From Apus apus (lineage: Eukaryota; Chordata; Aves; Apodiformes; Apodidae), in the NCBI RefSeq assembly GCF_020740795.1, contig NC_067294.1, positions 17,985,001-18,049,000 of the forward strand: a stretch of 64,000 nt of DNA, written 5' to 3'. A program made the translations under genes and the position numbers. How positions within the stretch are numbered: position 1 is the first letter of the stretch; every line of letters begins with the position of its first letter. Of this stretch, positions 3,701-61,404 are shown piece after piece. The notes below the pieces were generated by a model. It was given only the letters and a program-made list of their open reading frames with translations. It was not told the origin of the DNA and did not search any database.

Positions 3701-3711
3701 TCACACACCTG
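3701..3711 (-). other. Splice donor ending variable exon V8
   Basis: On the minus strand the exon ends CAG|GTGTGTGAG after codon 813, in phase 0. Gamma variable exons are known to splice to three shared constant exons, which lie outside this window. The reading frame continues past the donor by chance to a stop at 3601. V6 and V4 have CAG|GTCTGT at the same site. Confidence 0.75.
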
Positions 3712-6147
3712 CGGTGCGTCGGGGCGGGCGGGCGGCTCTCCCGGTCCGGCGCTGCTGCTCGGGCTCCGCTCCCCGCACGCCTCCCCGCCGAGCAGCTCCT
3801 CCGCGGCCAGGCTGGGCAGCGGCGGCGGCTGCAGCCAAGCGGCCTCGGGCAGGCCGCGGCCCGGCGCCACGCACACGTTGTAGGAGTAGGGCAAGGTGCC
3901 CTCGCAGAAGTCGGCCGGGAAGGCGGCGCCGGCCACCGAGAAGCGCTGCGCGCCCAGGCAGCGCAGCACGGCGGGCGGCCCGGCCCGGCGCAGCCGCGCC
4001 AGCACGGCCAGCGCCACGCTCAGCACGAAGAGCGCGGACAGCAGCGCCAGCGCCAGCACCAGGTAGAACTGCAGCTCCGCCGGCGACTCGGCGCCCGCCG
4101 CCCGCTCGCTCAGCTCCGGCAGCGCCTCCTGCAAGCTCTCGGCCAGCACCACGTGCAGCGTGGCCGTGGCCGACAGCGCCGGCTGCCCGTGGTCCTTCAC
4201 CACGGCCACCAGCCGCTGCTTGGCCGCGTCCCGCTCCGACACGGCCCGCGCCGTGCGCACCTCGCCGCTGTGCAGCCCCACGCGGAACAGCGCCGGCTCC
4301 GCCGCCGCCACCAGCTCGTACGACAGCCACGCGTTGCGCCCCGCGTCCGCGTCCACCGCCACCACCTTGGCCACCAGGTAGCCGGCCTCGGCCGAGCGCG
4401 GCACCACCTCGAACGGCGCCGCCGCCGCCCCCCCCGCCTCCCCCGGGCCCGCCGCCGGCCACAGCACCCGCGGCGCGTTGTCGTTGCGGTCCAGCACGAA
4501 GACGCGCACCGTGGCCGTCGAGCTCCGCGCCGGCGCCCCGCCGTCCTGCGCCCGCACCGCCACCGCGAACTCGCGGCACTGCTCGTAGTCGAACGAGCGC
4601 TGCGCGTACACCGCGCCGCTCCGCGCCTCCACCGACACGTAGGGCGCCGCGCCCGCGCTGCCGCCCGCCAGCCAGTAGCTCACGCGCCCGTTGGCGCCCG
4701 CGTCCGCGTCCCGCGCGCGCACGCGCAGCACCGCCGCGCCCGCCGCGTTGTTCTCCGCCACGTACGCGCTGTAGGCCGCCTCCTCGAACACCGGCGCGTT
4801 GTCGTTCACGTCCGACACCTCCAGCACCAGCGCCGCGCGGCTCCACAGCGACGGGCTGCCCCGGTCCCTGCCCACCACCCACACGCGGTGCTCCGCCGCC
4901 TGCTCCCGGTCCAGCGCGCTCGCCGTCACCACCTTGTACGAGCCGCCCGACGACGCCACCAGCGACAGCGGCGCCTCGCCCGACAGCTCCAGCCACACGG
5001 CGCCGTTCTCGCCCGAGTCCGGGTCGGTCACCTTCACCAGCGCCACCACCGTGCCGACTGCCGCGTCCTCGGGCACCGGGCTCGACACCGACAGCACCGT
5101 GATTTCGGGCGCGTTGTCGTTCTCGTCCGTGATTTCTATTTCCACTTCACAGTGTGCCACCAGCCCGCCGCCGTCCCTCGCCTCCAGGCCGAAGCTGTAC
5201 TTGCTCTTCTCCTCGAAATCGAGGGCTCCCGCCGTCCTCACCTCGCCGCTCTCGCTGTCGACGCTGAACAACGCTCGCACGCCCTCCGGGACGTTCCCGA
5301 AGCCGTAGGACACCCGCGCGTTGGAGCCCGCGTCCGCATCCGTGGCTCGCACCTGCAGCACCACGGACCCCACCGGTACATTCTCCCGCACTCGCTCCTC
5401 GTAGATGCTTTTACTGAACATGGGCGCGTTGTCGTTGGCGTCGGTGACGTTGACGAGAATCTGGACAGTCCCGGACCTCGCGGGGTCTCCGCCATCCACC
5501 GCCGTCAGCACCAGCTGAAAGGAGCTCTGCTCCTCACGGTCCAGAGCTCTCTCCAGCACTAGTTCCGGCTGCTTCTTCCCTCCCGAGCTCTCCTTCAAAG
5601 CCAGAGAGAAGGACGGGCTGCTAGTGAGCTGGTAGGTCAGCAGCGCGTTGCTGCCCACGTCCGGGTCTCGCGCCGTCTCCAGCGGAAAACGCGCCCCGGG
5701 AAGTGTCAGCTCTGGGATCTCGAGGCCGAGAGCAGCCTTGCTGAAGGCCGGGTCGTTGTCGTTGACGTCGTGGATGTCGACCTGGACGTGGAAGACGTTG
5801 AGCGGGTTGTGCAGCAGCGCCTCGAAGCTGACGGAGCAGGACGCCGCCTCGCCGCACATCTCCTCCCGGTCCAGCCGCTCGCTCACGTACAGCTGCCCGC
5901 TCTCCCCGCTCACGCCGAAGTATTGCTTCTCGGCGCTGAGCCGCAGCTTGCGTGCCGGCAGCTCCGCCGGGCTCAGCCCCAGGTCCCGCGCCAGCGGCCC
6001 CACCAGCGAGCCTCTGCCCAGCTCCTCGGGGATGGCGTAGCGGATCCGCTCCGGCGCCGCCCGGCAGCACAAGCCCAGCAGCAGCAAGGCGGCCAGCAGC
6101 ACTCGCCCGCCTGCTCGCCGCCGCCTCGGCCTCTGCCTGCCCGCCAT
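3709..6147 (-). CDS. PCDHGB: Clustered protocadherin gamma-B-type variable exon (V8)
   Basis: A single large exon of 813 codons. It encodes a homophilic cell-adhesion receptor of the neuronal surface. A signal peptide covers residues 1 to about 31 (arginine-rich start, then a leucine-rich core). Six cadherin repeats follow, with boundaries marked by DVNDNDP (128-133), DANDNAP (236-242), DENDNAP (341-347), DVNDNAP (446-452) and DRNDNAP (553-559). EC1 carries the clustered-protocadherin C-x5-C loop (C98-C104). The membrane segment is about 693-717. The tail has GTLPYSYNVCVA, as in mammalian gamma-B proteins. I chose the ATG at 6147 because it directly precedes the signal peptide; the frame stays open 93 codons further upstream only because of GC richness. 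The exon ends at a phase-0 donor, CAG|GTGTGT. It is nearly identical to V6 except in EC2. Gamma-B identity is a family-level call; the exact orthologue is not resolved. Confidence 0.93.
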
Positions 6148-21010: not shown

Positions 21011-21460
21011 AACACGAGTGTGGAAGAGAAAACCTGACCCTCTTATCAACAATAACTGAAAAGTGCCACGGCGAACTGCCTGCTTTAGGGAAAGGCAGTC
21101 ACCGCGCTCTTTCACTCACTCCCGCAGACACGCACCAGCGCTCCCCAGCCACCCCACCCGCGTAAAACCCCACCCGTGAAACAGACAACCCAGAGGACCA
21201 AAAACGCAAGAAGAGAAGAAAAGACACACCTGTCAGGAAGGAAAAACTCTCCAACATTAAGCATCAATATAATTATGCCAACTCTGTCACACAGCAGATA
21301 GCATCATAGCGAGCTCAAAAGAGTTGAAGACAAAAAACTCTGAGCTCAACCTGAACCTGTCATCACCGATAAACTGGAAAGTGCCCCAGAGAACTGCCTG
21401 CTGTAAGGGAAAAACAGTCACCCCGCTCTTTCGCTCACTCCCAGGTTCAGCGCCATCAAA
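21011..21460. repeat. Relic of gamma-B exon downstream flank
   Basis: Contains GGGAAAGGCAGTCACCGCGC and ACACGCACCAGCGCTCCCCA at about 21090-21150. Next to true gamma-B exons these lie within about 120 bp of the donor, but here no exon follows. A second AACTGCCTGCTGTAAGGGAA block at about 21391 resembles the V4 flank near 41300. Confidence 0.65.
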
Positions 21461-23520: not shown

Positions 23521-23530
23521 CACAGACCTG
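23521..23530 (-). other. Splice donor ending variable exon V6
   Basis: CAG|GTCTGTG on the minus strand, phase 0, after codon 813. Position +3 is C rather than the purine seen in most donors. The same variant occurs in V4. Confidence 0.65.
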
Positions 23531-25966
23531 CGGTGCGTCGGGGCGGGCGGGCGGCTCTCCCGGTCCGGCGCTGCTGCTCGGGCTCCGCTCCCCGCACGCC
23601 TCCCCGCCGAGCAGCTCCTCCGCGGCCAGGCTGGGCAGCGGCGGCGGCTGCAGCCAAGCGGCCTCGGGCAGGCCGCGGCCCGGCGCCACGCACACGTTGT
23701 AGGAGTAGGGCAAGGTGCCCTCGCAGAAGTCGGCCGGGAAGGCGGCGCCGGCCACCGAGAAGCGCTGCGCGCCCAGGCAGCGCAGCACGGCGGGCGGCCC
23801 GGCCCGGCGCAGCCGCGCCAGCACGGCCAGCGCCACGCTCAGCACGAAGAGCGCGGACAGCAGCGCCAGCGCCAGCACCAGGTAGAACTGCAGCTCCGCC
23901 GGCGACTCGGCGCCCGCCGCCCGCTCGCTCAGCTCCGGCAGCGCCTCCTGCAAGCTCTCGGCCAGCACCACGTGCAGCGTGGCCGTGGCCGACAGCGCCG
24001 GCTGCCCGTGGTCCTTCACCACGGCCACCAGCCGCTGCTTGGCCGCGTCCCGCTCCGACACGGCCCGCGCCGTGCGCACCTCGCCGCTGTGCAGCCCCAC
24101 GCGGAACAGCGCCGGCTCCGCCGCCGCCACCAGCTCGTACGACAGCCACGCGTTGCGCCCCGCGTCCGCGTCCACCGCCACCACCTTGGCCACCAGGTAG
24201 CCGGCCTCGGCCGAGCGCGGCACCACCTCGAACGGCGCCGCCGCCGCCCCGCCCGCCTCCCCCGGGCCCGCCGCCGGCCACAGCACCCGCGGCGCGTTGT
24301 CGTTGCGGTCCAGCACGAAGACGCGCACCGTGGCCGTCGAGCTCCGCGCCGGCGCCCCGCCGTCCTGCGCCCGCACCGCCACCGCGAACTCGCGGCACTG
24401 CTCGTAGTCGAACGAGCGCTGCGCGTACACCGCGCCGCTCCGCGCCTCCACCGACACGTAGGGCGCCGCGCCCGCGCTGCCGCCCGCCAGCCAGTAGCTC
24501 ACGCGCCCGTTGGCGCCCGCGTCCGCGTCCCGCGCGCGCACGCGCAGCACCGCCGCGCCCGCCGCGTTGTTCTCCGCCACGTAGGCGCTGTAGGCCGCCT
24601 CCTCGAACACCGGCGCGTTGTCGTTCACGTCCGACACCTCCAGCACCAGCGCCGCGCGGCTCCACAGCGACGGGCTGCCCCGGTCCCTGCCCACCACCCA
24701 CACGCGGTGCTCCGCCGCCTGCTCCCGGTCCAGCGCGCTCGCCGTCACCACCTTGTACGAGCCGCCCGACGACGCCACCAGCGACAGCGGCGCCTCGCCC
24801 GACAGCTCCAGCCACACGGCGCCGTTCTCGCCCGAGTCCGGGTCGGTCACCTTCACCAGCGCCACCACCGTGCCGACTGCCGCGTCCTCGGGCACCGGGC
24901 TCGACACCGACAGGACCGTGATTTCGGGCGCGTTGTCGTTCTCGTCCGTGATTTCTATTTCCACTTCACAGTGTGCCACCAGCCCGCCGCCGTCCCTCGC
25001 CTCCAGGCCGAAGCTGTACTTGCTCTTCTCCTCGAAATCGAGGGCTCCCGCCGTCCTCACCTCGCCGCTCTCGCTGTCGACGCTGAACAACGCTCGCACG
25101 CCCTCCGGGACGTTCCCGAAGCCGTAGGACACCCGCGCGTTGGAGCCCGCGTCCGCATCCGTGGCTCGCACCTGCAGCACCACGGATCCCACCGGTACAT
25201 TCTCCCGCACTCGCTCCTCGTAGATGCTTTTAGTGAACACGGGCGCGTTGTCGTTGGCGTCGGTGACGTTGATGAGAATCTGGACAGTCCCGGACCTCGC
25301 GGGGTCTCCGCCATCCACCGCCGTCAGCACCAGCTGAAAGGAGCTCTGCTCCTCACGGTCCAGAGCTCTCTCCAGCACTAGTTCCGGCTGCTTCTTCCCT
25401 CCCGGGCTCTCCTTCAAAGCCAGAGAGAAGGACGGGTTGCTAGAGAGCTGGTAGGTCAGCAACGCGTTGCTGCCCACGTCCGGGTCTCGCGCCGTCTCCA
25501 GCGGAAAACGCGTCCCGGCAGATGTGAATTCGTTGATCTCGAGGCCGAGAGCAGCCTTGCTGAAGGCCGGGTCGTTGTCGTTGACGTCGTGGATGTCGAC
25601 CTGGACGTGGAAGACGTTGAGCGGGTTGTGCAGCAGCGCCTCGAAGCTGACGGAGCAGGACGCCGCCTCGCCGCACATCTCCTCCCGGTCCAGCCGCTCG
25701 CTCACGTACAGCTGCCCGCTCTCCCCGCTCACGCCGAAGTATTGCTTCTCGGCGCTGAGCCGCAGCTTGCGTGCCGGCAGCTCCGCCGGGCTCAGCCCCA
25801 GGTCCCGCGCCAGCGGCCCCACCAGCGAGCCTCTGCCCAGCTCCTCGGGGATGGCGTAGCGGATCCGCTCCGGCGCCGCCCGGCAGCACAAGCCCAGCAG
25901 CAGCAAGGCGGCCAGCAGCACTCGCCCGCCTGCTCGCCGCCGCCTCGGCCTCTGCCTGCCCGCCAT
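23528..25966 (-). CDS. PCDHGB: Clustered protocadherin gamma-B-type variable exon (V6)
   Basis: An 813-codon variable exon with the V8 layout: signal peptide 1-31, EC1-EC6, membrane segment about 693-717, and a tail with GTLPYSYNVCVA. It encodes a single-pass neuronal adhesion receptor of the gamma-B class. Compared with V8 I see protein differences only between about residues 145 and 245, in EC2 and the EC2-EC3 linker: for example INEFTSAGTR in place of IPELTLPGAR, SSN for TSS, and APVFTK for APMFSK. EC1, EC3-EC6, the membrane segment and the tail read the same. The start at 25966 was chosen by the signal peptide. It ends at CAG|GTCTGT in phase 0, a slightly weaker donor than that of V8. Confidence 0.93.
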
Positions 25967-26213
25967 GCTCGCCAGCGCTCGCCGCGCTCCTCCCTCCTGC
26001 CGCTGCCCTCGCTCGCTCCCTGCCAGCCCCTCTCCGCAGCCCGCGCAGGGGCCGCCGGACGGCAGCGAGCTCGGCGCCGCCTCGGACGCCGCTGCTCTCG
26101 CCTCTCTCTGCTGCCCGTGCCGCTGCCGCTCTGCCCGGCGCCGGCCGAGCGAGCAGCCTGCGGGGGCAGGACGCTGCGGCGGCTGCGGCTGCGGCTCCAG
26201 CGCCGCTCCTTGT

Positions 26214-26232
26214 CGGCCAACAGCGGCACCCG
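26214..26232 (-). promoter_or_regulatory. CSE / CGCT-box promoter element of V6
   Basis: Same 19-base element as upstream of V8, CGGGTGCCGCTGTTGGCCG, about 250 bp before the V6 ATG. Confidence 0.75.
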
Positions 26233-26514
26233 GAGGCGCCGCCACGACACCGCAGCCGCCTGATGGCCGCGCTCGGGGGCCCGGGCTGGCAGCGGGGGGC
26301 GCGGCTCTTCCCGCCTCTCCGCTCTCCCTGCCGGTGGAATCTGGAAGCTCCTACGGCCTTGGGTACGTGCCTGAGCCCCAAGGCTTTAATCTGAGATGCG
26401 CTGTTGTGCTTTGTCCTGTCATGACTGATCATGGTAAGAACTCTCTCCATCTCTTTATGAAGCCCCCTTTAAACATCGAGCAGCTGCAGTAAGGTCTCCC
26501 TGGAGCCTTCTCTT

Positions 26515-40189: not shown

Positions 40190-41440
40190 GGAGCTCTGCT
40201 TTAAACATCTCATAGAGAACAAGGTGTAAATTATCTTTTACATCGCGAGTGATTGAGATCAGACATTTAAAGGAGCATTAGTCCCACCCGGCTGGAATCA
40301 TATGCTTGCCTCTCCGCAAACTGCTGGGAAAGTGGCTTTGAGAATGAAGCAAGAAGAGCAATAGGTACGCCTGCTTTCCTTATATTCCTCTTTTCTCAAC
40401 AGTATTTTGAACTGGGGAAGAGCAATTGAATGTTTCAGGGAAATACTGAGATAATGCCTAAATCATTCAAGTGCTGCAACACTTCAACATGCAGCTCATA
40501 CTGAGAAAGGAAGAGCAATGGAGCGGCAGTTGCCCTTTCAAATAGTCCACATTAATGTTGCTTTTCTAGAATTTCTACGCATTTGCACTTAACTAATTCG
40601 ACAGGTTGAATGACTAGGAAGGGCCTCTTCTGTCAGATATCAAGATGTAAAGGACTATAACTTGTTTCATAATGATTCAGCTAAATCCTTTAATCTTCAT
40701 CTTGGTAGGAAACCTTTTCAACACAGTGAAGAGAAGAGATTCCAGCTGCACCTCCTGCTGCAGGCGGCCCGTTTGTAAATGTGCAAATGGCCTTTATTCA
40801 AGAGTCTAATGGCTGTCATTTGCATATCTGTGTCCTCAGAATGGTTAGAGATCCTAGTGGTAGCTCAGGCACCAATAACTGTTGCAAAAAGGGGCTTAAA
40901 AAAAAAAAAAAAAAAAAAAAAGACCTCAGTTCAGTATTTCCCTTTCAATGCCATCAACCTGGTCCAAGCACAGAGTTTGTTCAGGGTTTTTTGTTTGTTT
41001 TTGAGACCCCATTCTACATCCTCATCCGTTCATAAAAGGCTGACGAGGAACTGCTCACAAATAAGGGAACTGAGGGAAGTGACACACAGGACAAAGAAGA
41101 GAGAAATAACTGCACAATGCACTCGGAAATACCTTACCTGCATAAAACTGACTCAAGGGTCAATTCCATCTCTTCAACTACATCGCACAGAATCAGCAGA
41201 GCGCGTGCTACACAGTGAGTTCACAATTGCTTGAGATACAAACCTGTCAGCTCAACTTGAACCTGTCAACACCGATAAACTGGAAGTGCCCCAGAGAATT
41301 GCCTGCTGTAAGGGAAAAACAGTCACCCCGTTCTTTCACTCACTCCCGGAGACACGCACCAGCGCTCCCCAGCCACCCCACCCGCGGAACACACAACCCA
41401 GGGGGCCAGAAGGAGAAGAGCGAGAGCGCGCGGGCTCACA
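40190..41440. repeat. Downstream flank of V4 (full repeat module)
   Basis: Third exon-linked copy of the module, more diverged over most of its length. The octamer ATTTGCAT is near 40818, followed by a 24-base poly-A (40898-40921). The last 100 bp before the exon are almost identical to the V6 flank, in keeping with recent conversion of the V4 3' end. Confidence 0.7.
40898..40921. repeat. Poly-A tract
   Basis: 24 consecutive A residues replacing an A/G-rich stretch in the paralogous modules (GAAAAAAGGGGCTGAG near 3179 and 23010). Confidence 0.9.
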
Positions 41441-41446
41441 GACCTG
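41437..41446 (-). other. Splice donor ending variable exon V4
   Basis: CAG|GTCTGTG in phase 0, identical to the V6 donor. Confidence 0.65.
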
Positions 41447-43894
41447 CGGTGCGTCGGGGCGGGCGGGCGGCTCTCCCGGTCCGGCGCTGCTGCTCGGGCT
41501 CCGCTCCCCGCACGCCTCCCCGCCGAGCAGCTCCTCCGCGGCCAGGCTGGGCAGCGGCGGCGGCTGCAGCCAAGCGGCCTCGGGCAGGCCGCGGCCCGGC
41601 GCCACGCACACGTTGTAGGAGTAGGGCAAGGTGCCCTCGCAGAAGTCGGCCGGGAAGGCGGCGCCGGCCACCGAGAAGCGCTGCGCGCCCAGGCAGCGCA
41701 GCACGGCGGGCGGCCCGGCCCGGCGCAGCCGCGCCAGCACGGCCAGCGCCACGCTCAGCACGAAGAGCGCGGACAGCAGCGCCAGCGCCAGCACCAGGTA
41801 GAACTGCAGCTCCGCCGGCGACTCGGCGCCCGCCGCCCGCTCGCTCAGCTCCGGCAGCGCCTCCTGCAAGCTCTCGGCCAGCACCACGTGCAGCGTGGCC
41901 GTGGCCGACAGCGCCGGCTGCCCGTGGTCCTTCACCACGGCCACCAGCCGCTGCTTGGCCGCGTCCCGCTCCGACACGGCCCGCGCCGTGCGCACCTCGC
42001 CGCTGTGCAGCCCCACGCGGAACAGCGCCGGCTCCGCCGCCGCCACCAGCTCGTACGACAGCCACGCGTTGCGCCCCGCGTCCGCGTCCACCGCCACCAC
42101 CTTGGCCACCAGGTAGCCGGCCTCGGCCGAGCGCGGCACCACCTCGAACGGCGCCGCCGCCGCCGCCGCCCCGCCCGCCTCCCCCGGGCCCGCCGCCGGC
42201 CACAGCACCCGCGGCGCGTTGTCGTTGCGGTCCAGCACGAAGACGCGCACCGTGGCCGTCGAGCTCCGCGCCGGCGCCCCGCCGTCCTGCGCCCGCACCG
42301 CCACCGCGAACTCGCGGCACTGCTCGTAGTCGAACGAGCGCTGCGCGTACACCGCGCCGCTCCGCGCCTCCACCGACACGTAGGGCGCCGCGCCCGCGCT
42401 GCCGCCCGCCAGCCAGTAGCTCACGCGCCCGTTGGCGCCCGCGTCCGCGTCCCGCGCGCGCACGCGCAGCACCGCCGCGCCCGCCGCGTTGTTCTCCGCC
42501 ACGTAGGCGCTGTAGGCCGCCTCCTCGAACACCGGCGCGTTGTCGTTCACGTCCGATACCTCCAGCACCAGCGCCGCGCGGCTCCACAGCGACGGGCTGC
42601 CCCGGTCCCTGGCAGTGATGGTGATGTTGTAAGCAGAGACCTGTTCTCTGTCCAGGCCACTGGCTATTATTAGTTTATAGGTGTTGGCTGATGACGATTC
42701 TAGTCTGAAAGGCAAATCCCCGTCGATGTTGCAGCTCACTTTTCCATTATCCCCCGAGTCTCTGTCACGGACATTGATCACTGCTATAACTGTGCTCGGT
42801 TCTGAATCTTCGGGTACCGGGTTCAAGATTGGAAGGACAGTAATAGTTGGCGCATTGTCATTGATGTCTATAATATCTATGTGCACTTTGGCGTGCGCAC
42901 TCAACCCACCCCCGTCCTTGCCCTCAACAGTCGCATCATAGTATTTCTCCTCCTCATGATCTAAGGGACCTGTAACCCTCACGTCCCCTGTCCTGGAGTC
43001 CAAACTGAAGACCTGGAGAGCATTCTTAGAGATGTCATTGAAAGAGTAGGTAATTTCTGCATTTGTACCTTCGTCACTGTCAGTAGCTTTCACCTGAAAG
43101 GCTAAGGAGCCCTCTGGCAGGTTTTCCAGCAGCTGAAACATGTAGATTTCTTTGGTGAATACCGGGGGGTTGTCATTTGCGTCGGTCACGTTAATCTTAA
43201 GCTGAGTGGTCCCTGATCGTACTGGATCCCCGCCATCCACTGCCGTCAGTATTAAATGGTGATTTCTCTGTTTTTCTCGATCTAAGCTTTTCTCCAGTAC
43301 CAGTTCAGCTTGTTTCGTCCCATCAGGACTCTCCCTCACTACAAGGGAGAAGTGCGGGTGTGGGGTAAGTTGGTAGTTTTGTAATGAGTTCGCTCCAATG
43401 TCGGGGTCTCTTCCACTGCCCAGTGGGAATCTGGCCCCAGGGGGTGTGGACTCGATCATTTCTATGGCAACAAATTCTCTGTCAAACCGCGGCGCATTGT
43501 CGTTGATATCCTGGACAGTAACGCTCACATGAAATATATTGAAAGGGTTTTCCACGAATGCCTCCAAACTGAGGACACATGGGGACACGGCCCCGCAGAT
43601 GCTCTCTCGGTCTATCCTCTCGTTTACCCGCAGATTTCCATTATCTTCCCCGAGAGTGAAGTACTGCTTTTCATCGCTAGAGACTATCCGCAGCTTGCGT
43701 GCCGGCAGCTCCGCCGGGCTCAGCCCCAGGTCCCGCGCCAGCGGCCCCACCAGCGAGCCTCTGCCCAGCTCCTCGGGGATGGCGTAGCGGATCCGCTCCG
43801 GCGCCGCCCGGCAGCACAAGCCCAGCAGCAGCACAGCCAACAGCGCGACCCGCCCGGCGGCTGCTCGGCCCTGCGCTGCCGCTCGGACGTCCAT
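41444..43894 (-). CDS. PCDHGB: Mosaic protocadherin gamma-B-type variable exon (V4)
   Basis: An 817-codon gamma-B variable exon, starting at ATG 43894 directly before a signal peptide (MDVRAAAQGRAAAG, then a leucine-rich core). EC1 has CGAVSPC, and six EC repeats are followed by the membrane segment and the GTLPYSYNVCVA tail. It is a patchwork. Positions 43833-43688 (end of signal peptide, start of EC1) are identical to V6. Positions 43687-42612 (rest of EC1 to the end of EC4) are clearly divergent and much less GC-rich. From 42611 to the end the sequence again follows V6, with one visible base change and a 6-bp in-frame GCC expansion. It ends at CAG|GTCTGT, phase 0. The pattern fits gene conversion or unequal exchange between gamma-B paralogues. 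Because its EC1-EC4 differ, it should have its own homophilic specificity. Confidence 0.94.
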
Positions 43895-44112
43895 TCTCTG
43901 CTTTGCTGAAGCGGATTCTGCAGGCGGCTTTCAATTAGGTTTTGCGAGCAGGTGAATCAGCACCTGAAATAAATAAATATACGAAATCCCTTCTTCTGGT
44001 CGGAGGATGAGGTTGAGTCAGGCAATTCCTGCTTTTCTCTCTCCTCTGCTCCGTGAGGAGGGGGATTGCGCGGGCGCCGGGGAGGAGCCGGTGGCTGAGC
44101 CGCTTCTCCATC

Positions 44113-44132
44113 TTGGCCAACAGTGACACCCT
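44113..44132 (-). promoter_or_regulatory. Variant CSE upstream of V4 with altered CGCT core
   Basis: AGGGTGTCACTGTTGGCCAA lies about 220 bp upstream of the V4 ATG. It matches the gamma-B element of V6 and V8 on both sides, but the core reads CACT instead of CGCT. That is what decay of a methylated CpG would give. The promoter may bind CTCF differently. Confidence 0.65.
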
Positions 44133-44139
44133 GAGTCCA

Positions 44140-47100
44140 TGTCTTAGAACCGCAGCGTCCGAGGGGAAGGGAACAGCCCGAAGGTCCTGCTATGCGCGTC
44201 CTTAAAAGAGACCGCAGTCGAACGTCCTGATACGTGCGTCCTTAATCCGCACCCACACTCGGCTCGGAAAGTACAGATGATGTCAGGGGCGCGAAGGAGA
44301 AAACGTGTATCTGTGCGGACATGGTGCATCTGGGAATTGTTATTGTCTGAATTTCTTACACTTCCAAGTCTTGTGCAAGACAATCCTCGCCCGTTGCTCG
44401 GAGGACGTGGTGCAGGATCTCTGTCTCTGCCTCGCAGTGATCTTACTGGTTTCTAGGGTGAGGGGGCGGGCGTGTCTCCCACCGGGAGAGAAATGGCAGG
44501 ACGGGACTGCTCGTAAATAGTGGTTTTCGACAGCTGGGAGATCCCGAGCCAGCGCTCAGCTTTCCCGCTTTGAATGGTAATGGCTGATGGAGGAGAAAAG
44601 CTGGGAATCCCAGCCACTGAGTAAACTACAGCGGACACACCTGTGATGGATCCCATCTCTTTCAAAGTCCCAATCCCGATTTTCTTCTGTCTGCGTCTCA
44701 AGCGAGTCAAGAGAAACCAGACAGATCCTTCATGAAAAGCCGTTGTATCTCACCCGTAAATTAAACCTCCTCTTACGGTGAAAAAAAAACAAGACCTGAA
44801 GAAAAAACAGATGACCAAGCCCCTTATGCAGCAGATACGAAAAGGTTAGAAAACTTCTCTACGACATACCTGGTGGAGTGGATTTCGCATATGCACCAAC
44901 ACTGAGTCTCTGTAGATGGCATTGTGAAGACCTACCTCCTCCCCGTCACAGTGAGGTGTCATTAGAAAACGTTTTCCTGCTGATTCTGACCATGCATCCA
45001 GTGGAGGATACTTTCCTTTCCTCCAGCTGCATCTATACACGACTCACAGTAACAATAACCTATCAGAATGAGAAATTGGTTTGCATTTGTAGTGTTTCAG
45101 ATGTCAAAAGGCAGCAACCAAGTGTCTCTGTATGAGGCCGGGAGAAGGAAACAGATGTTTATATAGGGGACGGGGGGACTCTGATGAAACCTGTTGGGGA
45201 TAATTCACTGCCTCTTATATAGCAAGAATTGCGTAGCCCAACACAGATAAAAATTTTAATGGATCTTCACACACCAAAGCACCTTCCAGATCGCTGTTTC
45301 CAAGTGAAGACTGATGCCTCCTTCTTCCAGGATTTGCTCCTTCCCATTGCACCCAAGCCCACAAGCCACAGCACAGTTAAGTCCCAGCAGGACACAGCTA
45401 AGAACCAGCCAATATTTTCTTCCCACATGCATGATGCATGTGGTTTTCTCTGATGGATGGTAGCAGAATTTGGTAAAAAACACAAGGTTAGTTCACGTGA
45501 AGCATAAGTTTGACTCATCTTAGGTTCCCACCACACAAAGGAGGACCAGTAGCAGGTCTAGAATCAACATTAAAAAAAAAAAATATCTCTGTGGACCTTC
45601 ACCGGGAACCTTACAATGTAATTCTCTCAACCTGAAAGCAGTAATTTTTTATGTGCCTCTAGTTTATTATTATTATTTTTTTTCTAACTGTAACACTACA
45701 ATGTATCACTGGCTTAAAAGCAGAATAACAAATAGCAGGACATAATATTATTAATTAATTAGATTCCTGAAGTCCTAAAAGCCTCAATGTCCATGCTGAA
45801 AAATCACTAACGAAGAAAATATGACAAGCTGCTTCCAAGGAAGCCTGTTTGGTATCCATGCTGTCAGAACAGAATGGTGTGTTTGGCAGGAAAAAATGTT
45901 TTACTATGATAAGGAAACAAAGGAGTAAAATATTTTATATTCTCAGATTAGACACAAGATAAATAGGCTGTGTATTTTGTTTTAAAATATTTCTCATCAG
46001 TATTCCATTAAATATTTGATGCCAATGACTATATATTAATTGCCAATTTCATTTGTATTGAATCCAAAGGTTAAGTCAGGAAGACCACCACTGGGAAAAA
46101 AAACTGATGGGATATCAGAAGAATTTTTCACCATGTAATGTGAACCTATTCATGGAACAGATGTTCCTTTAATTAGGATTGATTAATTCATCTGTTGAAG
46201 GCAGATTTCCAAGTAACCTGAGACTTCAGAGGTGCTGACTACTAGGTTACCCAATTCTATCAGCATTTGAGAGCTAATAGAGGGGTGGTAATGAAATTCT
46301 GGGAACTGGGTATTAGGAAGTTTCAAGGAGGTGTCAGAGGAAGGCAGAGTCTGAAATTTCTCTGTGCACATGCAACAGAAACTTCCAGCCTTAGTAAAAC
46401 CAGACAAGATTAACTCAGCCCAGCTGGTGGTAAATGTGGCCCATAAAACACATACAGGAGATTCAGCACATGTTCAGGGGGTGATATTCATGAACTGGTG
46501 ATCATTGTAAGATGTGATTTTTAATACTGTGAGTTGTGTACTTTGAGACGGATGTGGCTGCCCTCAGAATCCTAAGCACTGTGTACACAAAGGAAGGTTT
46601 TTGTTTTTGGTTTGGTTTGGTTTGTTTTTTTTAATAATGTACCTGAAAGAAACCTGGGCCATCATTCTTGACAAAGTGATCTCCCATAAGATGAGCTCAC
46701 CAGAAGCTTCAGCTGAGATGTTATTCATAGCTCTGTTTATTGTAGCTTGACACAATTGGAAGAGATTAGAATAGATAATGGTCCATCCCTTCAGAGAAGG
46801 ACCCTGAGCAGAACCCTGAGCAGAGAGTTCAGAGTTCAGAGGAGAACCCTGAGCAGAGTAACTTCACACAGGACTCCAGGCACACACAGCATACCATGAA
46901 GACCTTGGTCATAGAAAACGAAGAGTGTCCCCTTTTCTGGCATTCAAGCCATTTTAGGACTTGACTGCAAAACTTCAATTCCATACATAATTTTTAGTAA
47001 AAGAAATTCCCACGTGGATTTCTTGTTCATAGGCAGTTTTCTCACCAGGGGCAAGTGGGAGCTGCCTGCAGCTTCCTTGGTTCCAATGAGCTGGCTGAGT

Positions 47101-52137: not shown

Positions 52138-54636
52138 TCAGGCGTGGACGAGATGGCCGACCGGCCAGTCCGGCGGCACAACGGCAGGAGGGGCTGGGGT
52201 TCCTAGGGCAGCTGCCCCGACGCTCCTGGGCTCCGAGCTGCACAGCGGTCCCTCGTCCTGGCCCGATCCCGCCTCAGCGCTGCCTTGCGGGATGGCCAGG
52301 ACTGGCCTCAGGATCTGGAATTCGCTCCTCTCCGAGCCGGTGGTCAGGCCCACTTCGTAGCGGAAAGCCGGCGACAGAGTGCCCGTCCCGCTTATGTCCT
52401 CGCTGCCGGGGACGTAGTCGCCGTCGGTGTAGCAGTGGGCAGCGGGAGGCGAAAGGCGTGGCCGGAGGCGACTCTTGCAGAGCCTGGCTGCCGAGAAGAC
52501 GAGGATGGAGAGGAGGAAGAGCGAGGAGACGCAGACCAGGGAAGCGATGAGATAAGTGGTGAGCAGGTCCTCGTCGGCCACCTCAGGCTGCTGCCTCCCC
52601 ACTGGAACGCGGTTGAGCTGGAGGAAGGCGTCGGAGAAGCCGTCCACCAGGGCGATGGCCAGGGTGGCGCTGGCGGAGCGCGGCGGCTGCCCGCGGTCTC
52701 GCACCAGCACCACGAGCCTCTGGCGGGCCGCGTCCCTCTCCGCCACGGCCCGCGCCGTGCGCACCTCGCCGCTGTGCAGCCCCACGCGGAACAGCCCCGG
52801 CTCCGTCGCCTTGGCCAGCTCGTACGACAGCCACGCGTTCTGCCCCGCGTCCGCGTCCACCGCCACCACCTTGGCCACCAGCTCGCCCGCCGCCGCCCCG
52901 CGCGCCACCAGCTCGCCCGCCAACGCGCTGCTGCCGGGGGGCGGGTGCAGCACCACGGGCGCGTTGTCGTTCTCGTCGCGCACCACCACGCGCAGCACCG
53001 CCTGCGCGCTCAGCGGCGGCGAGCCGCCGTCGGCAGCGCGCACCGCCACCTCCAGGCCGCGCACCTCCTCGTAGTCCAGCGCCCGCAGCGCCCGCACGAT
53101 TCCGCTCTCAGCGTCCACGGACACGAAAGATGCCTCTGCGGGGATTCCCGGCGGGGCTGCCCCCAATGCGTATCTCACGTGGGCGTTTTTCCCCGCATCG
53201 GCGTCCGTGGCTCTCAGGCGGCCCAGGATCGTCCCCGCGGGCTCGTTCTCCTTCAGCACCATGGTGTATACCTCCTGCGTGAACATGGGCGCGTTGTCAT
53301 TCACGTCCAGAAGCCGTAAGAGCAATGTCTTCGACGTCGAGAGCGCGGGGGAGCCCTCGTCGCGGGCCCGCAGTGTCACGTTGTACTCTGACACTTCTTC
53401 CCTGTCCAAGCCCTCCGATGTCACCAGCGCGTAAGCGTCGGCCGCCAGCGGAGCGATGCTGAAGGGCTGCTCACCTGCCGTTTCGCAGCTTGTCCTGCCA
53501 TTTTCTCCCGAGTCCCGATCCCGCACGTTGAAAAGGGCCACCACAGTGTTTGGTGGGGCGGCTTCCGAGAGTGTGCTGGTGACGGACGTGATTATCACCT
53601 CGGGTGCGTTGTCGTTCACGTCCTCCACCTGCACCTCCACCTTGCAGTGAGCGGACAGGCCCCCTCCGTCTGTGGCCTGGACGTCTATCTCGTACGACTT
53701 TGTTTCTTCATAATCTACCGGCTTTTTGAGTCGAATCTGCCCCGTCTCGGAATTTATTTTAAAGGTCTGGAGATTTTCTTCTGAATTTTGAACTATGGAA
53801 TAGGATATTTCCCCATTCGTTCCGGCGTCTAAATCACTAGCAGAAACTGCCACAACTAATATATCCTGGGAACTATTTTCTAATACCCGAGCTTTATACA
53901 GACTCCGGGTAAATTCTGGGATGTTGTCATTTGTATCCAGGACTACTACACGGATTAAGGCGGTACCAGAGAGTGGTGGAGACCCACCATCCACAGCCGT
54001 GACACTGAAAGTCACTTCTGCCTGTTGTTCTCGGTCCAGCTCTCGGTCCAATACCAGTTCGGCGTACCTCCTGCCATCACTCCGCCTCCGGGTGTGGATA
54101 TGGAAATAGTCGTTCGAGCTGATGTTGTAATACTGAAGACTATTGTTCCCCACATCCGCATCCTGAGCGCTTTCCAATAAAAATCGAGCTTCTGGCATTG
54201 CAGTTTCCGGGATCTTTAAAACTATCTCTGTATTTAAGAACACGGGAGCATGATCATTTATATCGGTGAGGCTTACCTCGGCTCGGAAGGACTGCAGCGG
54301 GCTCTCCAGCAGCACCTCGAAACGCACAAGGCAGGGCTCGCTCTGGCCGCACAGCTCCTCCCTGTCCATTCGCTCTCGCACCACCAAATCCCCGGTGTGT
54401 TGGTTCAGTTGTAAATACTGCTTTTGTCCTTCAGAAATGAGCCGAGCCTGCCGAGCCGATAACTCCTCACGGGTCAGTCCCAAATCCTTAGCGATATTCG
54501 CCACAAAGAAGCCTCTCTCCGTCTCTTCGGGCACAGAGTAGCGGGCTGTTTCTGTTCTCGATCCTGACACAAGAAGGAGCAGAATCAGAGGCACTGCTAG
54601 CCCTGGCAACGGTTCCTGGCTCTTCCTCAGCTCCAT
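52138..54636 (-). CDS. PCDHB: Protocadherin beta-like single-exon gene (V2)
   Basis: An 832-residue intronless protocadherin. A signal peptide covers 1 to about 29 (MELRKSQEPLPGLAVPLILL), then ARYSVPEETERG, EC1 with CGQSEPC, and six EC repeats with linkers DINDHAP, DTNDNIP, DVNDNAP and DENDNAP. The membrane segment is about 693-717. The tail has FRYEVGLTTGSERSEFQILRP, a beta-like signature, and ends GHLVHA at TGA. No donor-like GTGAG or GTAAG is visible in the tail region, so it is probably unspliced. A 462-bp block covering EC6 and the end of EC5 (52628-53089) appears identical to V1, while EC1-EC4 differ and are less GC-rich. The start at 54636 fits the signal peptide, with a CGCT element 145 bp upstream. 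Confidence 0.92.
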   Translation of the reverse strand: MELRKSQEPLPGLAVPLILLLLVSGSRTETARYSVPEETERGFFVANIAKDLGLTREELSARQARLISEGQKQYLQLNQHTGDLVVRERMDREELCGQSEPCLVRFEVLLESPLQSFRAEVSLTDINDHAPVFLNTEIVLKIPETAMPEARFLLESAQDADVGNNSLQYYNISSNDYFHIHTRRRSDGRRYAELVLDRELDREQQAEVTFSVTAVDGGSPPLSGTALIRVVVLDTNDNIPEFTRSLYKARVLENSSQDILVVAVSASDLDAGTNGEISYSIVQNSEENLQTFKINSETGQIRLKKPVDYEETKSYEIDVQATDGGGLSAHCKVEVQVEDVNDNAPEVIITSVTSTLSEAAPPNTVVALFNVRDRDSGENGRTSCETAGEQPFSIAPLAADAYALVTSEGLDREEVSEYNVTLRARDEGSPALSTSKTLLLRLLDVNDNAPMFTQEVYTMVLKENEPAGTILGRLRATDADAGKNAHVRYALGAAPPGIPAEASFVSVDAESGIVRALRALDYEEVRGLEVAVRAADGGSPPLSAQAVLRVVVRDENDNAPVVLHPPPGSSALAGELVARGAAAGELVAKVVAVDADAGQNAWLSYELAKATEPGLFRVGLHSGEVRTARAVAERDAARQRLVVLVRDRGQPPRSASATLAIALVDGFSDAFLQLNRVPVGRQQPEVADEDLLTTYLIASLVCVSSLFLLSILVFSAARLCKSRLRPRLSPPAAHCYTDGDYVPGSEDISGTGTLSPAFRYEVGLTTGSERSEFQILRPVLAIPQGSAEAGSGQDEGPLCSSEPRSVGAAALGTPAPPAVVPPDWPVGHLVHA

Positions 54637-59022: not shown

Positions 59023-61404
59023 TGCGGCCCAGTCGCCTTCCTCGCCGAGGTTGGTGGCCTCCTGCGAGCACACCGAGCTGCGCTGGTCGGGCGGGCCGGG
59101 GGGCAGCCCGGCGGGGAAGCAGGGCAAGAGCGGCCTGAGGAAGCGAAACTCGCTGTTGACGGTGCCGCCGGCGAAGCAGATGTCGTAGACGTAGCTGCGG
59201 GGCAGGGAGCCCGCCGTGCTCTCCGTCACAGCCGTCGGGAAGGTGGGCAAGGGCTCGGCCCTGGCCCGCCGCAGCCTCAGCACCACGGCGGCCACGGCGC
59301 TGGCCACGAAGAGCGCCGACACGCAGGCCAGCGAGGCGATGAGGTAGAGGGTGAGGGGCCCGTCGGGCTCGGCGGCCGGCGCCTCCTCGCTCCGCCGCCA
59401 GTGCGCGTCGGAGAAGCCGTCCACCAGGGCGATGGCCAGGGTGGCGCTGGCGGAGCGCGGCGGCTGCCCGCGGTCTCGCACCAGCACCACGAGCCTCTGG
59501 CGGGCCGCGTCCCTCTCCGCCACGGCCCGCGCCGTGCGCACCTCGCCGCTGTGCAGCCCCACGCGGAACAGCCCCGGCTCCGTCGCCTTGGCCAGCTCGT
59601 ACGACAGCCACGCGTTCTGCCCCGCGTCCGCGTCCACCGCCACCACCTTGGCCACCAGCTCGCCCGCCGCCGCCCCGCGCGCCACCAGCTCGCCCGCCAA
59701 CGCGCTGCTGCCGGGGGGCGGGTGCAGCACCACGGGCGCGTTGTCGTTCTCGTCGCGCACCACCACGCGCAGCACCGCCTGCGCGCTCAGCGGCGGCGAG
59801 CCGCCGTCGGCAGCGCGCACCGCCACCTCCAGGCCGCGCACCTCCTCGTAGTCCAGCGCCCGCAGCACGTACACGTCCCCGCTCACAGCGTTGACCGACA
59901 CGGCGGGCTGCTCCTTGCCCTCCTGCCGCACCAGCGCGTAGCTGACGCGGGCGTTCTCCCCCGCGTCGGCGTCCGTGGCCTTCACGCTGCCGATCCGGAC
60001 CATCGGGCTGTTGTTCTCCGTCACCCACAGCGTGTACACCTGCTGCGCGAACTCGGGCGCGTTGTCGTTCACGTCCGAGATCCGCACGAAGATGCTTGCC
60101 CGCGAGCTCAGCCGCGGCCTGCCCCAGTCCAGCGCCGTGATGCTGATGTTATACTCCGCCGTCCTCTCCCTGTCCAGCGCCGCGTTGGTTCGCAGCTCGT
60201 AGTAGCTGTCGAACGTGGGGCTGAGGCTGAACGGCAGGTCCCCGGCGATCGAGCACTCCGTCCTGCCGTTGTCCCCGGAGTCCCGGTCCCGCACGCTGAA
60301 CAGGGCCACCACGGTGCGCGGCGCCGCGTCCTCGGCGATGGAGGCGCTGACGGACGTGAGCGCTATCTCCGGGGCGTTGTCGTTCACGTCCAGGACCTCC
60401 ACATGCACTTTACAGTGGCCGAAAAACCCTCCGCCGTCGGTGGCTCTCACCACCAGCTTGTGTACCTTCGCTTCTTCGAAGTCGAGGTTGCCCGCCACCC
60501 GAATCTCCCCCGTGGCAGGGTTCAGCTCGAAGAGCTTCACGGTCCTCTCCGGTGTCTGGGTGAAGGTGTAACGCACCTTCCCGTTGGAGCCTTCGTCGGG
60601 ATCCATGGCCACGACTCTGACCACCAGCTGCTCCGGGGGGCTGTTCTCGGCCAGCCGCACCTCGTACACCTCCCGAGCGAAGACTGGGGTGTTGTCATTG
60701 ATATCGAGCACCACGATCCGGACCCGAGCAGTGCCCGAGCGGGGTGGCGAGCCCCCGTCGGTGGCCGTGAGCACTAAGTTCAGCTCTCGCTGCTCTTCGC
60801 GGTCCAGCTGACGCTCTAGGACCAGCTCCGCGAATTTGGCTCCGTCTTCCGCAGTTGAGACAGCGAGGGAGAAATGCGAATTGGAGCCGAGGCTGTAGTT
60901 CTGCAAACCGTTCATACCCACGTCCCTGTCCTGGGCGCTTTCCAGAGGGAATCGGGACCCAGTAGATGCCGTTTCAGGAATCTCTAAAACCACCTCCTTC
61001 TTCGGAAACACGGGGGAATTGTCGTTCACGTCACGAACCTCCACCTCCCCGCGGATCAGCTGCATCGGATTCTCAAGGAATACCTTAAAGAAGAGCGTGC
61101 AGGTCTCGCTCTGCGGACAGAGCTGCTCTCGGTCCAGCGACTCCTTCACCGTCAGGACGCCGCTGCTCGGATCCAGGCGGAAAAGCTGCTCGTTCCCCTC
61201 GGACACAACGCGGGCCTTGCGAGCCGCCAGCTGGCTCGCAGCCACCCCCAGCTCCTTGCCAATGTCGGCGACAAAGGACTCCCTCTCCATTTCCTCCGCC
61301 ACAGAGTAGCGGAGGCGCTCGGCCCCGCTCTGACACACGCAAACGCACAGAAGAAACAAGAGCACTTGCCTCTCGCTGCCTCCGCTCCGTCTCCCGCTCG
61401 CCAT
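59020..61404 (-). CDS. Protocadherin variable exon, beta-like with a splice donor (V1)
   Basis: A 795-codon variable exon: signal peptide (MASGRRSGGSERQVLLFLL), [16 protein letters not shown]1 with CPQSETC, six EC repeats, and a membrane segment about 686-709. The tail has YVYDICFAGGTVNSEFRFLRP, close to the beta tail motif seen in V2 and V3. Unlike them it does not end in a clean beta-style terminus. After GEEGDWAAQ there is a strong phase-0 donor CAG|GTGAGG, and the frame only runs on 42 low-complexity codons to a stop at 58891. It therefore probably splices to downstream constant exons as gamma genes do. An in-frame ATG 15 codons upstream (61449) is an alternative start; 61404 fits the signal peptide and has G at -3 and +4. 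Whether it should be called beta, gamma or an ancestral intermediate cannot be settled here. Confidence 0.9.

What the first reader, a model, noticed from the sequence alone, without database searches (positions are those of the whole stretch)
41444..43894. V4 is a three-part mosaic with sharp identity edges
Compared with V6, V4 is identical over 43688-43833 (146 bp), clearly different over 42612-43687, then nearly identical again from 42611 to the exon end and into the 3' flank. The divergent middle is much less GC-rich. This is what gene conversion (or double unequal exchange) replacing the ends of one gamma-B exon would leave, while keeping its own EC1-EC4 recognition face. The seen part is the identity map; the mechanism is inferred.
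Basis: partly seen in the sequence, partly recalled or inferred. Interest (0 to 1): 0.8.

Follow-up and report, generated by a model that had tools for sequence, protein, structure and literature searches.

The report
Protocadherin exon with array-copied ends
A gene for a nerve-cell recognition protein keeps its own recognition core, while both of its ends are almost letter-for-letter copies of the ends of its neighbours; DNA copying between neighbouring genes is known in this gene family, but here it spares mainly the part that tells cells apart.

Summary
V4 (41444-43894) matches V6 at 146/146 bases (43688-43833), at 57.8% over 43681-42612, and with 1 substitution in 1271 bases from 42611 to 41335, 109 bp past the splice donor. 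Silent sites (pS 0, 0.77, 0.003) rule out protein constraint. The 42611 edge is a step.

V4 and V6 are two of at least 11 gammaB exons in the genome: 11 of 11 carry the block at 100%; ten, V4 included, carry the whole 3' tract at 99-100%. The other ten share the sequence before the ATG through EC1, and late EC4 through EC6, and vary almost only in EC2-EC3. GammaA and beta exons are similar. V4 is the outlier: own residues 38-396, array-type ends.

Best explanation: recurrent, probably GC-biased gene conversion, V4 a recipient. EC2-EC3 classes disagree with both flank trees, so cassettes have moved between positions.

Regional conversion with a discrete EC4/EC5 boundary is published for fugu. 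The two-sided form, in a probable bird, looks like a new variant. Assembly error was not tested with reads.

The parts
43688..43833 (-). 5' shared block (end of signal peptide to mature residue 37, in EC1)
   Evidence: 146/146 identical to V6 and V8; 11 of 11 genome matches at 100%
42612..43687 (-). V4's own middle: mature residues 38-396 (most of EC1, EC2, EC3, most of EC4), GC3 0.53
   Evidence: pS 0.771 to V6; only itself in a whole-genome DNA search, which skips very common words; next best protein match 51%; PDB matches led by gammaB
41335..42611 (-). 3' shared tract: end of EC4, EC5, EC6, TM, cytoplasmic part, splice donor and 109 bp beyond it
   Evidence: 1 substitution in 1271 bp to V6; ten gammaB copies, V4 included, at 99-100% over the full length, an eleventh over query 1-771 (40 of 61 candidates scored, so a lower bound)
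41444..43894 (-). V4 exon, ATG to splice donor; the most upstream gammaB exon found
43895..46900 (-). V4 upstream region, without counterpart elsewhere in the window (not searched in the genome)
   Evidence: stretch 43834-46900 finds only itself
40200..41334 (-). 3' flank: older similarity to V6 flank (80.4%) and V8 flank (81.8%); V6-V8 94.1%
23528..25966 (-). V6 exon (gammaB, class I cassette)
3709..6147 (-). V8 exon (gammaB by near-identity to V6, class I cassette)
25573..26259 (-). V6 coordinates of the 5' arm (about 290 bp before the ATG, signal peptide, EC1 to residue 99), invariant in ten gammaB exons (B2-B11) apart from single columns
   Evidence: invariant runs of 93, 519 and 74 columns
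23933..24813 (-). V6 coordinates of the 3' arm (residue 353 to just past EC6), invariant in ten exons apart from single columns and a short GGC-type repeat; in nine (without B11) on to 23526
   Evidence: runs of 229, 225, 94 and 318 columns in ten; run 24250-23526 in B2-B10
24814..25572 (-). V6 coordinates of the variable cassette (EC2-EC3 and start of EC4)
   Evidence: mean pairwise difference up to 0.31 in 75-bp windows; of 116 variable residues in 1-415, 115 lie at 100-353 and one at 75

Best explanation
V4 is the first gammaB variable exon found in a clustered protocadherin locus, in a probable bird. Shown: its two ends match the ends of ten other gammaB exons, while residues 38-396, the upstream region (against V6 and the rest of the window) and the 3' flank (80% to V6) do not. 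Inferred: misaligned repair in the germ line repeatedly copied array sequence into the ends of V4 (gene conversion, probably GC-biased). Copying stopped where V4's sequence was too different or where changes in the recognition face were selected against. The result is one shared cis/intracellular module (EC5-EC6, TM, cytoplasmic part) joined to V4's own trans-recognition module. In the other ten exons the same process has run further and left mainly EC2-EC3 variable.
For: Silent-site steps 0 / 0.77 / 0.003 and run tests. Identical inner edges against 10 of 10 other gammaB exons. The tract ends at 41335 while the flank stays at 80%, against a single recent crossover. At three of V4's four edges the arms common to the ten run on (354 bp beyond 43833, 187 bp beyond 43688, 124 bp beyond 42611, in V6 coordinates), so V4 looks like the recipient. 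GC3 0.96 and 0.99 in the V4 ends, 0.53 in its middle. Arms are more alike than flanks: among B2-B10, 5' flanks 75-99% and 3' flanks 89-99.5%, while the arms hold long invariant runs. GammaA (9 exons) and beta (10) repeat the 3' half: EC5, EC6 and the first 56-58 columns after EC6 have pS 0 in 36 of 36 and 45 of 45 pairs.
Against: No reads, no second individual and no related species were examined, so direction and timing are inferred. Exact identity over GC-rich paralogous stretches is also what over-correction in assembly would give. At the fourth edge (41335) the other exons begin to diverge as well, so it says nothing on direction. The older 80% flank similarity beside a saturated middle shows at least one earlier exchange or crossover that I cannot reconstruct. 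GC3 is high in the non-homogenised middle of V6 too (0.88), so GC bias is not a clean marker.
Confidence: 0.85

Rival explanations
1. Cassette replacement: V4 was an ordinary array gammaB exon whose EC1-EC4 segment was replaced by a divergent one, so the middle and not the ends is the import.
For: The cassette classes of the other exons have moved relative to their flanks; V4's 3' flank is homologous to that of V6 and V8.
Against: V4's upstream region is also unlike the rest of the window, so two separate imports around a 146-bp relic would be needed; the middle found only itself in the genome by DNA search.
Confidence: 0.12
2. Unequal crossing-over inside gammaB exons built the mosaic: V4's 5' half was joined to a copy of the array's 3' half plus flank.
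For: The 3' flank is homologous at 80% while the upstream is not; tandem units about 20 kb apart exist; the flanks hold truncated copies of gammaB exon ends.
Against: A single crossover would leave tract and flank equally young; the tract is 99.9% and the flank 80%. It also does not give the isolated 5' block. It may explain the older layer.
Confidence: 0.1
3. Assembly artefact: GC-rich repeated exon ends were collapsed or polished to one sequence.
For: The arms are GC-rich; two exons (B5, B11) share a 1-base G-run difference that breaks the frame, as a repeated consensus error could.
Against: The eleven copies lie 16.7-21.3 kb apart with flanks that differ on one 19.4-Mb contig; polishing should not turn about 58% similar sequence into 100% with a sharp edge (inference); small private differences persist in the tract.
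Confidence: 0.05
4. Purifying selection on DNA or protein in the ends.
For: [quoted passage not shown]
Against: Silent sites are identical too, yet matches that by place and score are gammaA exons reach only 78-79% to the V4 tract and those in the beta region 71-72%.
Confidence: 0.03

Closest known systems
Fugu Pcdh2 alpha and gamma subclusters (PMC1852091, section 7 read in full; passages)
   Same: 3' part of variable exons about 99% identical, discrete boundary in EC4 or EC5, raised GC3, read as repeated regional gene conversion.
   Different: There the divergent region is counted from mature residue 1 as one block (signal peptide excluded; EC1 is not given apart in the section I read). Here the other ten gammaB exons also share the sequence before the ATG, signal peptide and EC1, and essentially only EC2-EC3 varies; V4 shares mature residues 1-37 at the 5' side.
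Zebrafish Pcdh clusters (Noonan et al. 2004, not held; values as quoted in PMC2764143)
   Same: Very high ratio of highest to lowest ectodomain dS (79.5-1280 as quoted); gammaB here 0.489/0.0030, about 163, by a different estimator, 8 of 10 exons.
   Different: Teleost; I could not read the primary paper, so whether a 5' homogenised arm was described there is unknown to me.
Green anole Pcdh cluster (PMC2764143, passages seen)
   Same: A sauropsid with an expanded gammab subgroup.
   Different: Reported as low gene conversion (dS ratios 2.25-3.40, and 7.89 for gammaa); the locus here is of the high-conversion kind.
Xenopus tropicalis Pcdh cluster (PMC4978886, passages seen)
   Same: EC2 and EC3 described as the domains that appear not to be subject to gene conversion, unlike the other ectodomains.
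   Different: Low level there (ratios 2.32-5.35 in the four table rows that I saw).

Membership tests
Clustered protocadherin gammaB variable exon | One long exon coding for six cadherin repeats, TM and a short cytoplasmic stretch | tested here: met
   Pfam Cadherin (5 stretches), Cadherin_2 and Cadherin_C_2 over V4; single ORF 41336-43930
Clustered protocadherin gammaB variable exon | EC1-4 closer to gammaB than to gammaA, beta or alpha | tested here: met
   V4 middle: gammaB4 459.5, gammaB2 430, gammaB3 400, gammaB7 383 bits against gammaA9 390, alpha7 373, gammaA1 361, beta8 301. Against a clean call: gammaA9 lies between gammaB3 and gammaB7, and non-clustered protocadherin-10 reaches 424 summed over three stretches
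Clustered protocadherin gammaB variable exon | Splices to the shared gamma constant exons | not tested
   A GT donor follows 41444; constant exons were not searched for
Pcdh arrays homogenised by regional gene conversion (fugu/zebrafish type) | Paralogues near-identical at silent sites in the 3' exon part, divergent upstream, discrete boundary | tested here: met
Pcdh arrays homogenised by regional gene conversion (fugu/zebrafish type) | GC3 higher in the homogenised part | tested here: met
   V4: 0.958, 0.531 and 0.987 for block, middle and tract
Pcdh arrays homogenised by regional gene conversion (fugu/zebrafish type) | Intergenic flanks less alike than the homogenised exon part | tested here: met
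Pcdh arrays homogenised by regional gene conversion (fugu/zebrafish type) | Paralogues within a species more alike than orthologues between species in that part | not testable with these tools
   No related eukaryote genome was at hand (the genome has no relatives here)
Pcdh arrays homogenised by regional gene conversion (fugu/zebrafish type) | Homogenised region confined to the 3' (EC4-CP) side, as described for fugu | tested here: not met
   A second arm at the 5' side: V4 146 bp; B2-B11 about 690 bp

The most novel reading that the evidence does not exclude
The array works as a cassette system over evolutionary time. Two long, nearly identical arms (sequence before the ATG to EC1, and late EC4 to EC6 and beyond) flank an EC2-EC3 recognition cassette. 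Because the arms recombine freely, whole cassettes and cassette pieces move between array positions, so new specificities arise in a constant adhesive and signalling frame. V4 is a gene partly drawn into this system.
Probability: 0.45. Interest if true: 0.75.

Novelty: new variant of a known kind. Interest (0 to 1): 0.55.

Why it matters
Eight frame-intact gammaB isoforms of the ten beside V4 are nearly identical in EC1, late EC4, EC5, EC6, TM and cytoplasmic part and differ almost only in EC2-EC3. If that holds in the animal, the species has in effect done the domain-swap experiment that separates affinity (EC1:EC4) from specificity (EC2:EC3), as proposed in PMC5001838 (passages). It also places a probable bird among the high-conversion lineages while the one lizard whose paper I saw is low, so the cause of the difference can be tested across sauropsids. 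For V4 it gives a control isoform with its own EC1-EC4 on the same cis and intracellular module.

Tried and rejected
Purifying selection: rejected by silent sites. V6 as specific partner: within the window V4 shares V6's state at all five V6/V8 substitutions of the tract. Of two relic copies used to polarise three of these sites, the one at 21031-21175 supports a derived V4/V6 state at two (41441, 41392) and not at 41384; the one at 2082-2246 disagrees at 41392. With the genome in hand, V4 is equally close to B5 and within 2 substitutions of B4, B7 and B9, so I dropped it. Positive selection on EC2-EC3: mean dN/dS 0.24-0.60 within classes (class I 5 exons, class II 3 of 5), no support on average; V6-V8 has 11 residue changes, all at residues 113-213, not tested formally. 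GENECONV itself was not run; I wrote a permutation analogue. Structure prediction was not run, as it would not bear on the question. The first gammaB table included the frame-shifted B5 and B11 and is distorted from EC5 on; one search leaves these two out. The gammaA table leaves out L046 (9 of 10 exons used, V7 with its stop codon skipped). The residue labels printed are 12 too low (wrong start base); residues in this report come. The plasmid search was empty, as expected.

Full report
What is there. The window holds eight protocadherin variable exons on the minus strand. By PDB matches V4 and V6 are gammaB, V5 gammaA (among EC1-4-length chains), V2 and V3 beta (likewise). V8, V7 and V1 are filed by near-identity or position, not by a PDB search. 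The window lies at C14:17985001-18049000 of an unnamed 1.10-Gb genome in 110 contigs. Among 11 globin matches I read a group of three on C15 and one of four on C1, a layout that I recall for birds; the best single-stretch haemoglobin alpha matches are mostly named alpha-A, behind six fused human-type chains that score twice, and the best beta matches include entries that I recall as bird. This supports a bird; the species is not known.

The observation. V4 against V6, from upstream: 46.6% over 44300-43834, 146/146 over 43833-43688, 57.8% over 43681-42612, 1 substitution in 1271 over 42611-41335, 80.4% over 41334-40200. Five segments and seven segments fit about equally by BIC; the seven add a 71-bp identical patch in the 3' flank. 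The 42611 edge is a step; the other edges are compatible with steps but do not prove them. Silent-site pS is 0 of 44.7 sites in the block, 195.3 of 253.3 in the middle, 1.0 of 323.7 in the tract. Permutation run tests support block and tract on all sites, third positions and four-fold sites; the block on four-fold sites alone has p = 0.008, in the restricted test p <= 5e-5.

The wider array. Whole-genome searches found 11 matches to the 146-bp block, all at 100% (11 of 11 candidates scored), and ten of 99-100% to the whole tract, V4 included, plus an eleventh over query 1-771 (40 of 61 candidates scored). I call the exons B1 (V4) to B11. Across the other ten, the 5' arm (V6 26259-25573: about 290 bp before the ATG, signal peptide, EC1 to residue 99) and the 3' arm (V6 24813-23933, residue 353 to just past EC6) are invariant but for single columns and a short repeat. 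B11 diverges after that, and B5 and B11 share an extra G at V6 24359 that breaks the frame. Of residues 1-415, 116 vary among the ten; 115 lie at 100-353 and one at 75. V4 differs from the ten at 99 residues that are fixed among them, from 38 to 394 in V6 numbering, and its two inner edges are at the same bases against 10 of 10.

Interface positions. Taking positions named in the passages that I saw (PMC5106212; 77 from PMC5001838) in V6 numbering: 41, 77, 79 and 86 in EC1 are fixed in the ten; in EC2-EC3, 125, 128, 253 and 257 vary, but 111, 206 and 294 are fixed. So not every named EC2-EC3 position differs. 128 and 257 were named for gammaA, whose numbering may be shifted, and numbering beyond EC3 is offset by about two against mouse gammaB (my alignment reading); I rest no claim on single residues. 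V4 differs from the ten at 79 and 86.

Other subclusters. 9 of 10 gammaA exons (L046, with an early stop, left out) and 10 beta exons have pS 0 in EC5, EC6 and the first 56-58 columns after EC6 in 36 of 36 and 45 of 45 pairs (mean pN up to 0.009 in gammaA, 0 in beta), with highest mean dS 0.264 (gammaA EC3) and 0.227 (beta EC2); their EC1 is less homogenised (mean pS 0.052 and 0.029) than in gammaB. GammaB, 8 frame-intact of the ten: dS 0.0036, 0.403, 0.489, 0.051, 0.0030, 0.0060, 0 for EC1 to TM+CP. Published ratios of highest to lowest ectodomain dS, by other estimators: anole 2.25-7.89, coelacanth 1.59-1.75, elephant shark 1.8-2.3, zebrafish 79.5-1280, fugu 38.4 to over 94.6, Xenopus 2.32-5.35 in the four rows seen. 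This locus sits with the teleosts.

Mechanism. A single recent crossover cannot give a 99.9% tract beside an 80% flank, nor the isolated 5' block; conversion can. At three of V4's four edges the arms shared by the ten run on past the edge, so V4 most likely received the shared sequence (inference). The 80% flank next to a saturated middle needs an older exchange too; truncated copies of gammaB exon ends in the V6 and V8 flanks show that such events occurred. GC3 falls from 0.99 (tract) to 0.53 (V4 middle), as GC-biased conversion would leave, but gene-specific composition could contribute (V6 middle 0.88).

Cassettes. EC2-EC3 of the ten form two classes at about 65% identity: I = B2, B3, B7, B8, B9; II = B4, B5, B6, B10, B11. 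Holding class I as one clade is rejected on the 5' flank (p-AU 1.4e-52, 10 rows) and on the 3' flank (p-AU 4e-4, 9 rows, B11 left out because its flank is only 47-51% alike); at least three class changes are needed on either flank tree. The classes come from the cassette letters, but I had already seen the flank identity tables when I chose the test. So recombination in the arms has moved cassettes relative to flanks; conversion and crossing-over are not separated by this. Mean dN/dS within classes is 0.24-0.60 in EC2-EC3: the variability is at least partly escape from homogenisation, without sign of average positive selection.

Literature. Fugu section 7 was read in full and describes the 3' half of the phenomenon, with boundary, GC3 and interpretation. 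Anole and Xenopus papers were seen as passages, the two structure papers as passages and, for one, one section, one tandem-array paper as passages. Noonan et al. 2004 is not held and is cited only through others. In the listings of searches (the best 14-25 titles each) I saw no paper on gene conversion in avian beta or gamma protocadherins; the library holds only open-licence PMC papers, and the anole paper cites a chicken alpha-cluster paper (Sugino et al. 2004) that I did not see.

Verdict. Real, well defined, mostly the known phenomenon of regional gene conversion in protocadherin arrays, in a two-sided form that leaves EC2-EC3 as a cassette. V4 is the gammaB member that keeps the most of its own sequence.

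Noticed in passing
17535-17537 (V7, minus strand): In-frame TAG replaces E498 of the gammaA exon V7; the frame beyond stays open. A pseudogene, a polymorphism or an error.
   Followed up: partly
L034 and L040 (B5, B11), at the base matching V6 24359: Two non-adjacent gammaB exons share one extra G in a G run that shifts the frame: a broken allele perhaps spread by conversion, or a repeated consensus error.
   Followed up: partly
59405-59864 and 52628-53087: Late EC5 to EC6 of V1 and of the beta exon V2 is identical in letters, between divergent EC1-EC5 and TM parts; ten V1-like exons agree at silent sites from EC5 to the start of the cytoplasmic part.
   Followed up: partly
25232-25534 (V6) against V8: All 11 residue differences between V6 and V8 lie at residues 113-213; 432/432 bases before and 1700/1704 after agree.
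   Followed up: partly
682-781, 2082-2246, 21031-21175, 21305-21442: Truncated copies of the gammaB exon end/intron start in the 3' flanks of V8 and V6, relics of earlier duplications.
   Followed up: partly
40732-40802: 71 bp identical between V4 and V6 3' flanks within 78-80% surroundings, about 1.5 kb upstream of the V5 start; possible regulatory element or short conversion.
   Followed up: no
L046 (C14:17884400-17889200): A gammaA exon with an early stop (after 369 codons of the mature frame), likely degenerate.
   Followed up: no
L040 (B11): The last gammaB exon found follows the 3' arm only to about V6 23933 and has a divergent 3' end and flank.
   Followed up: no
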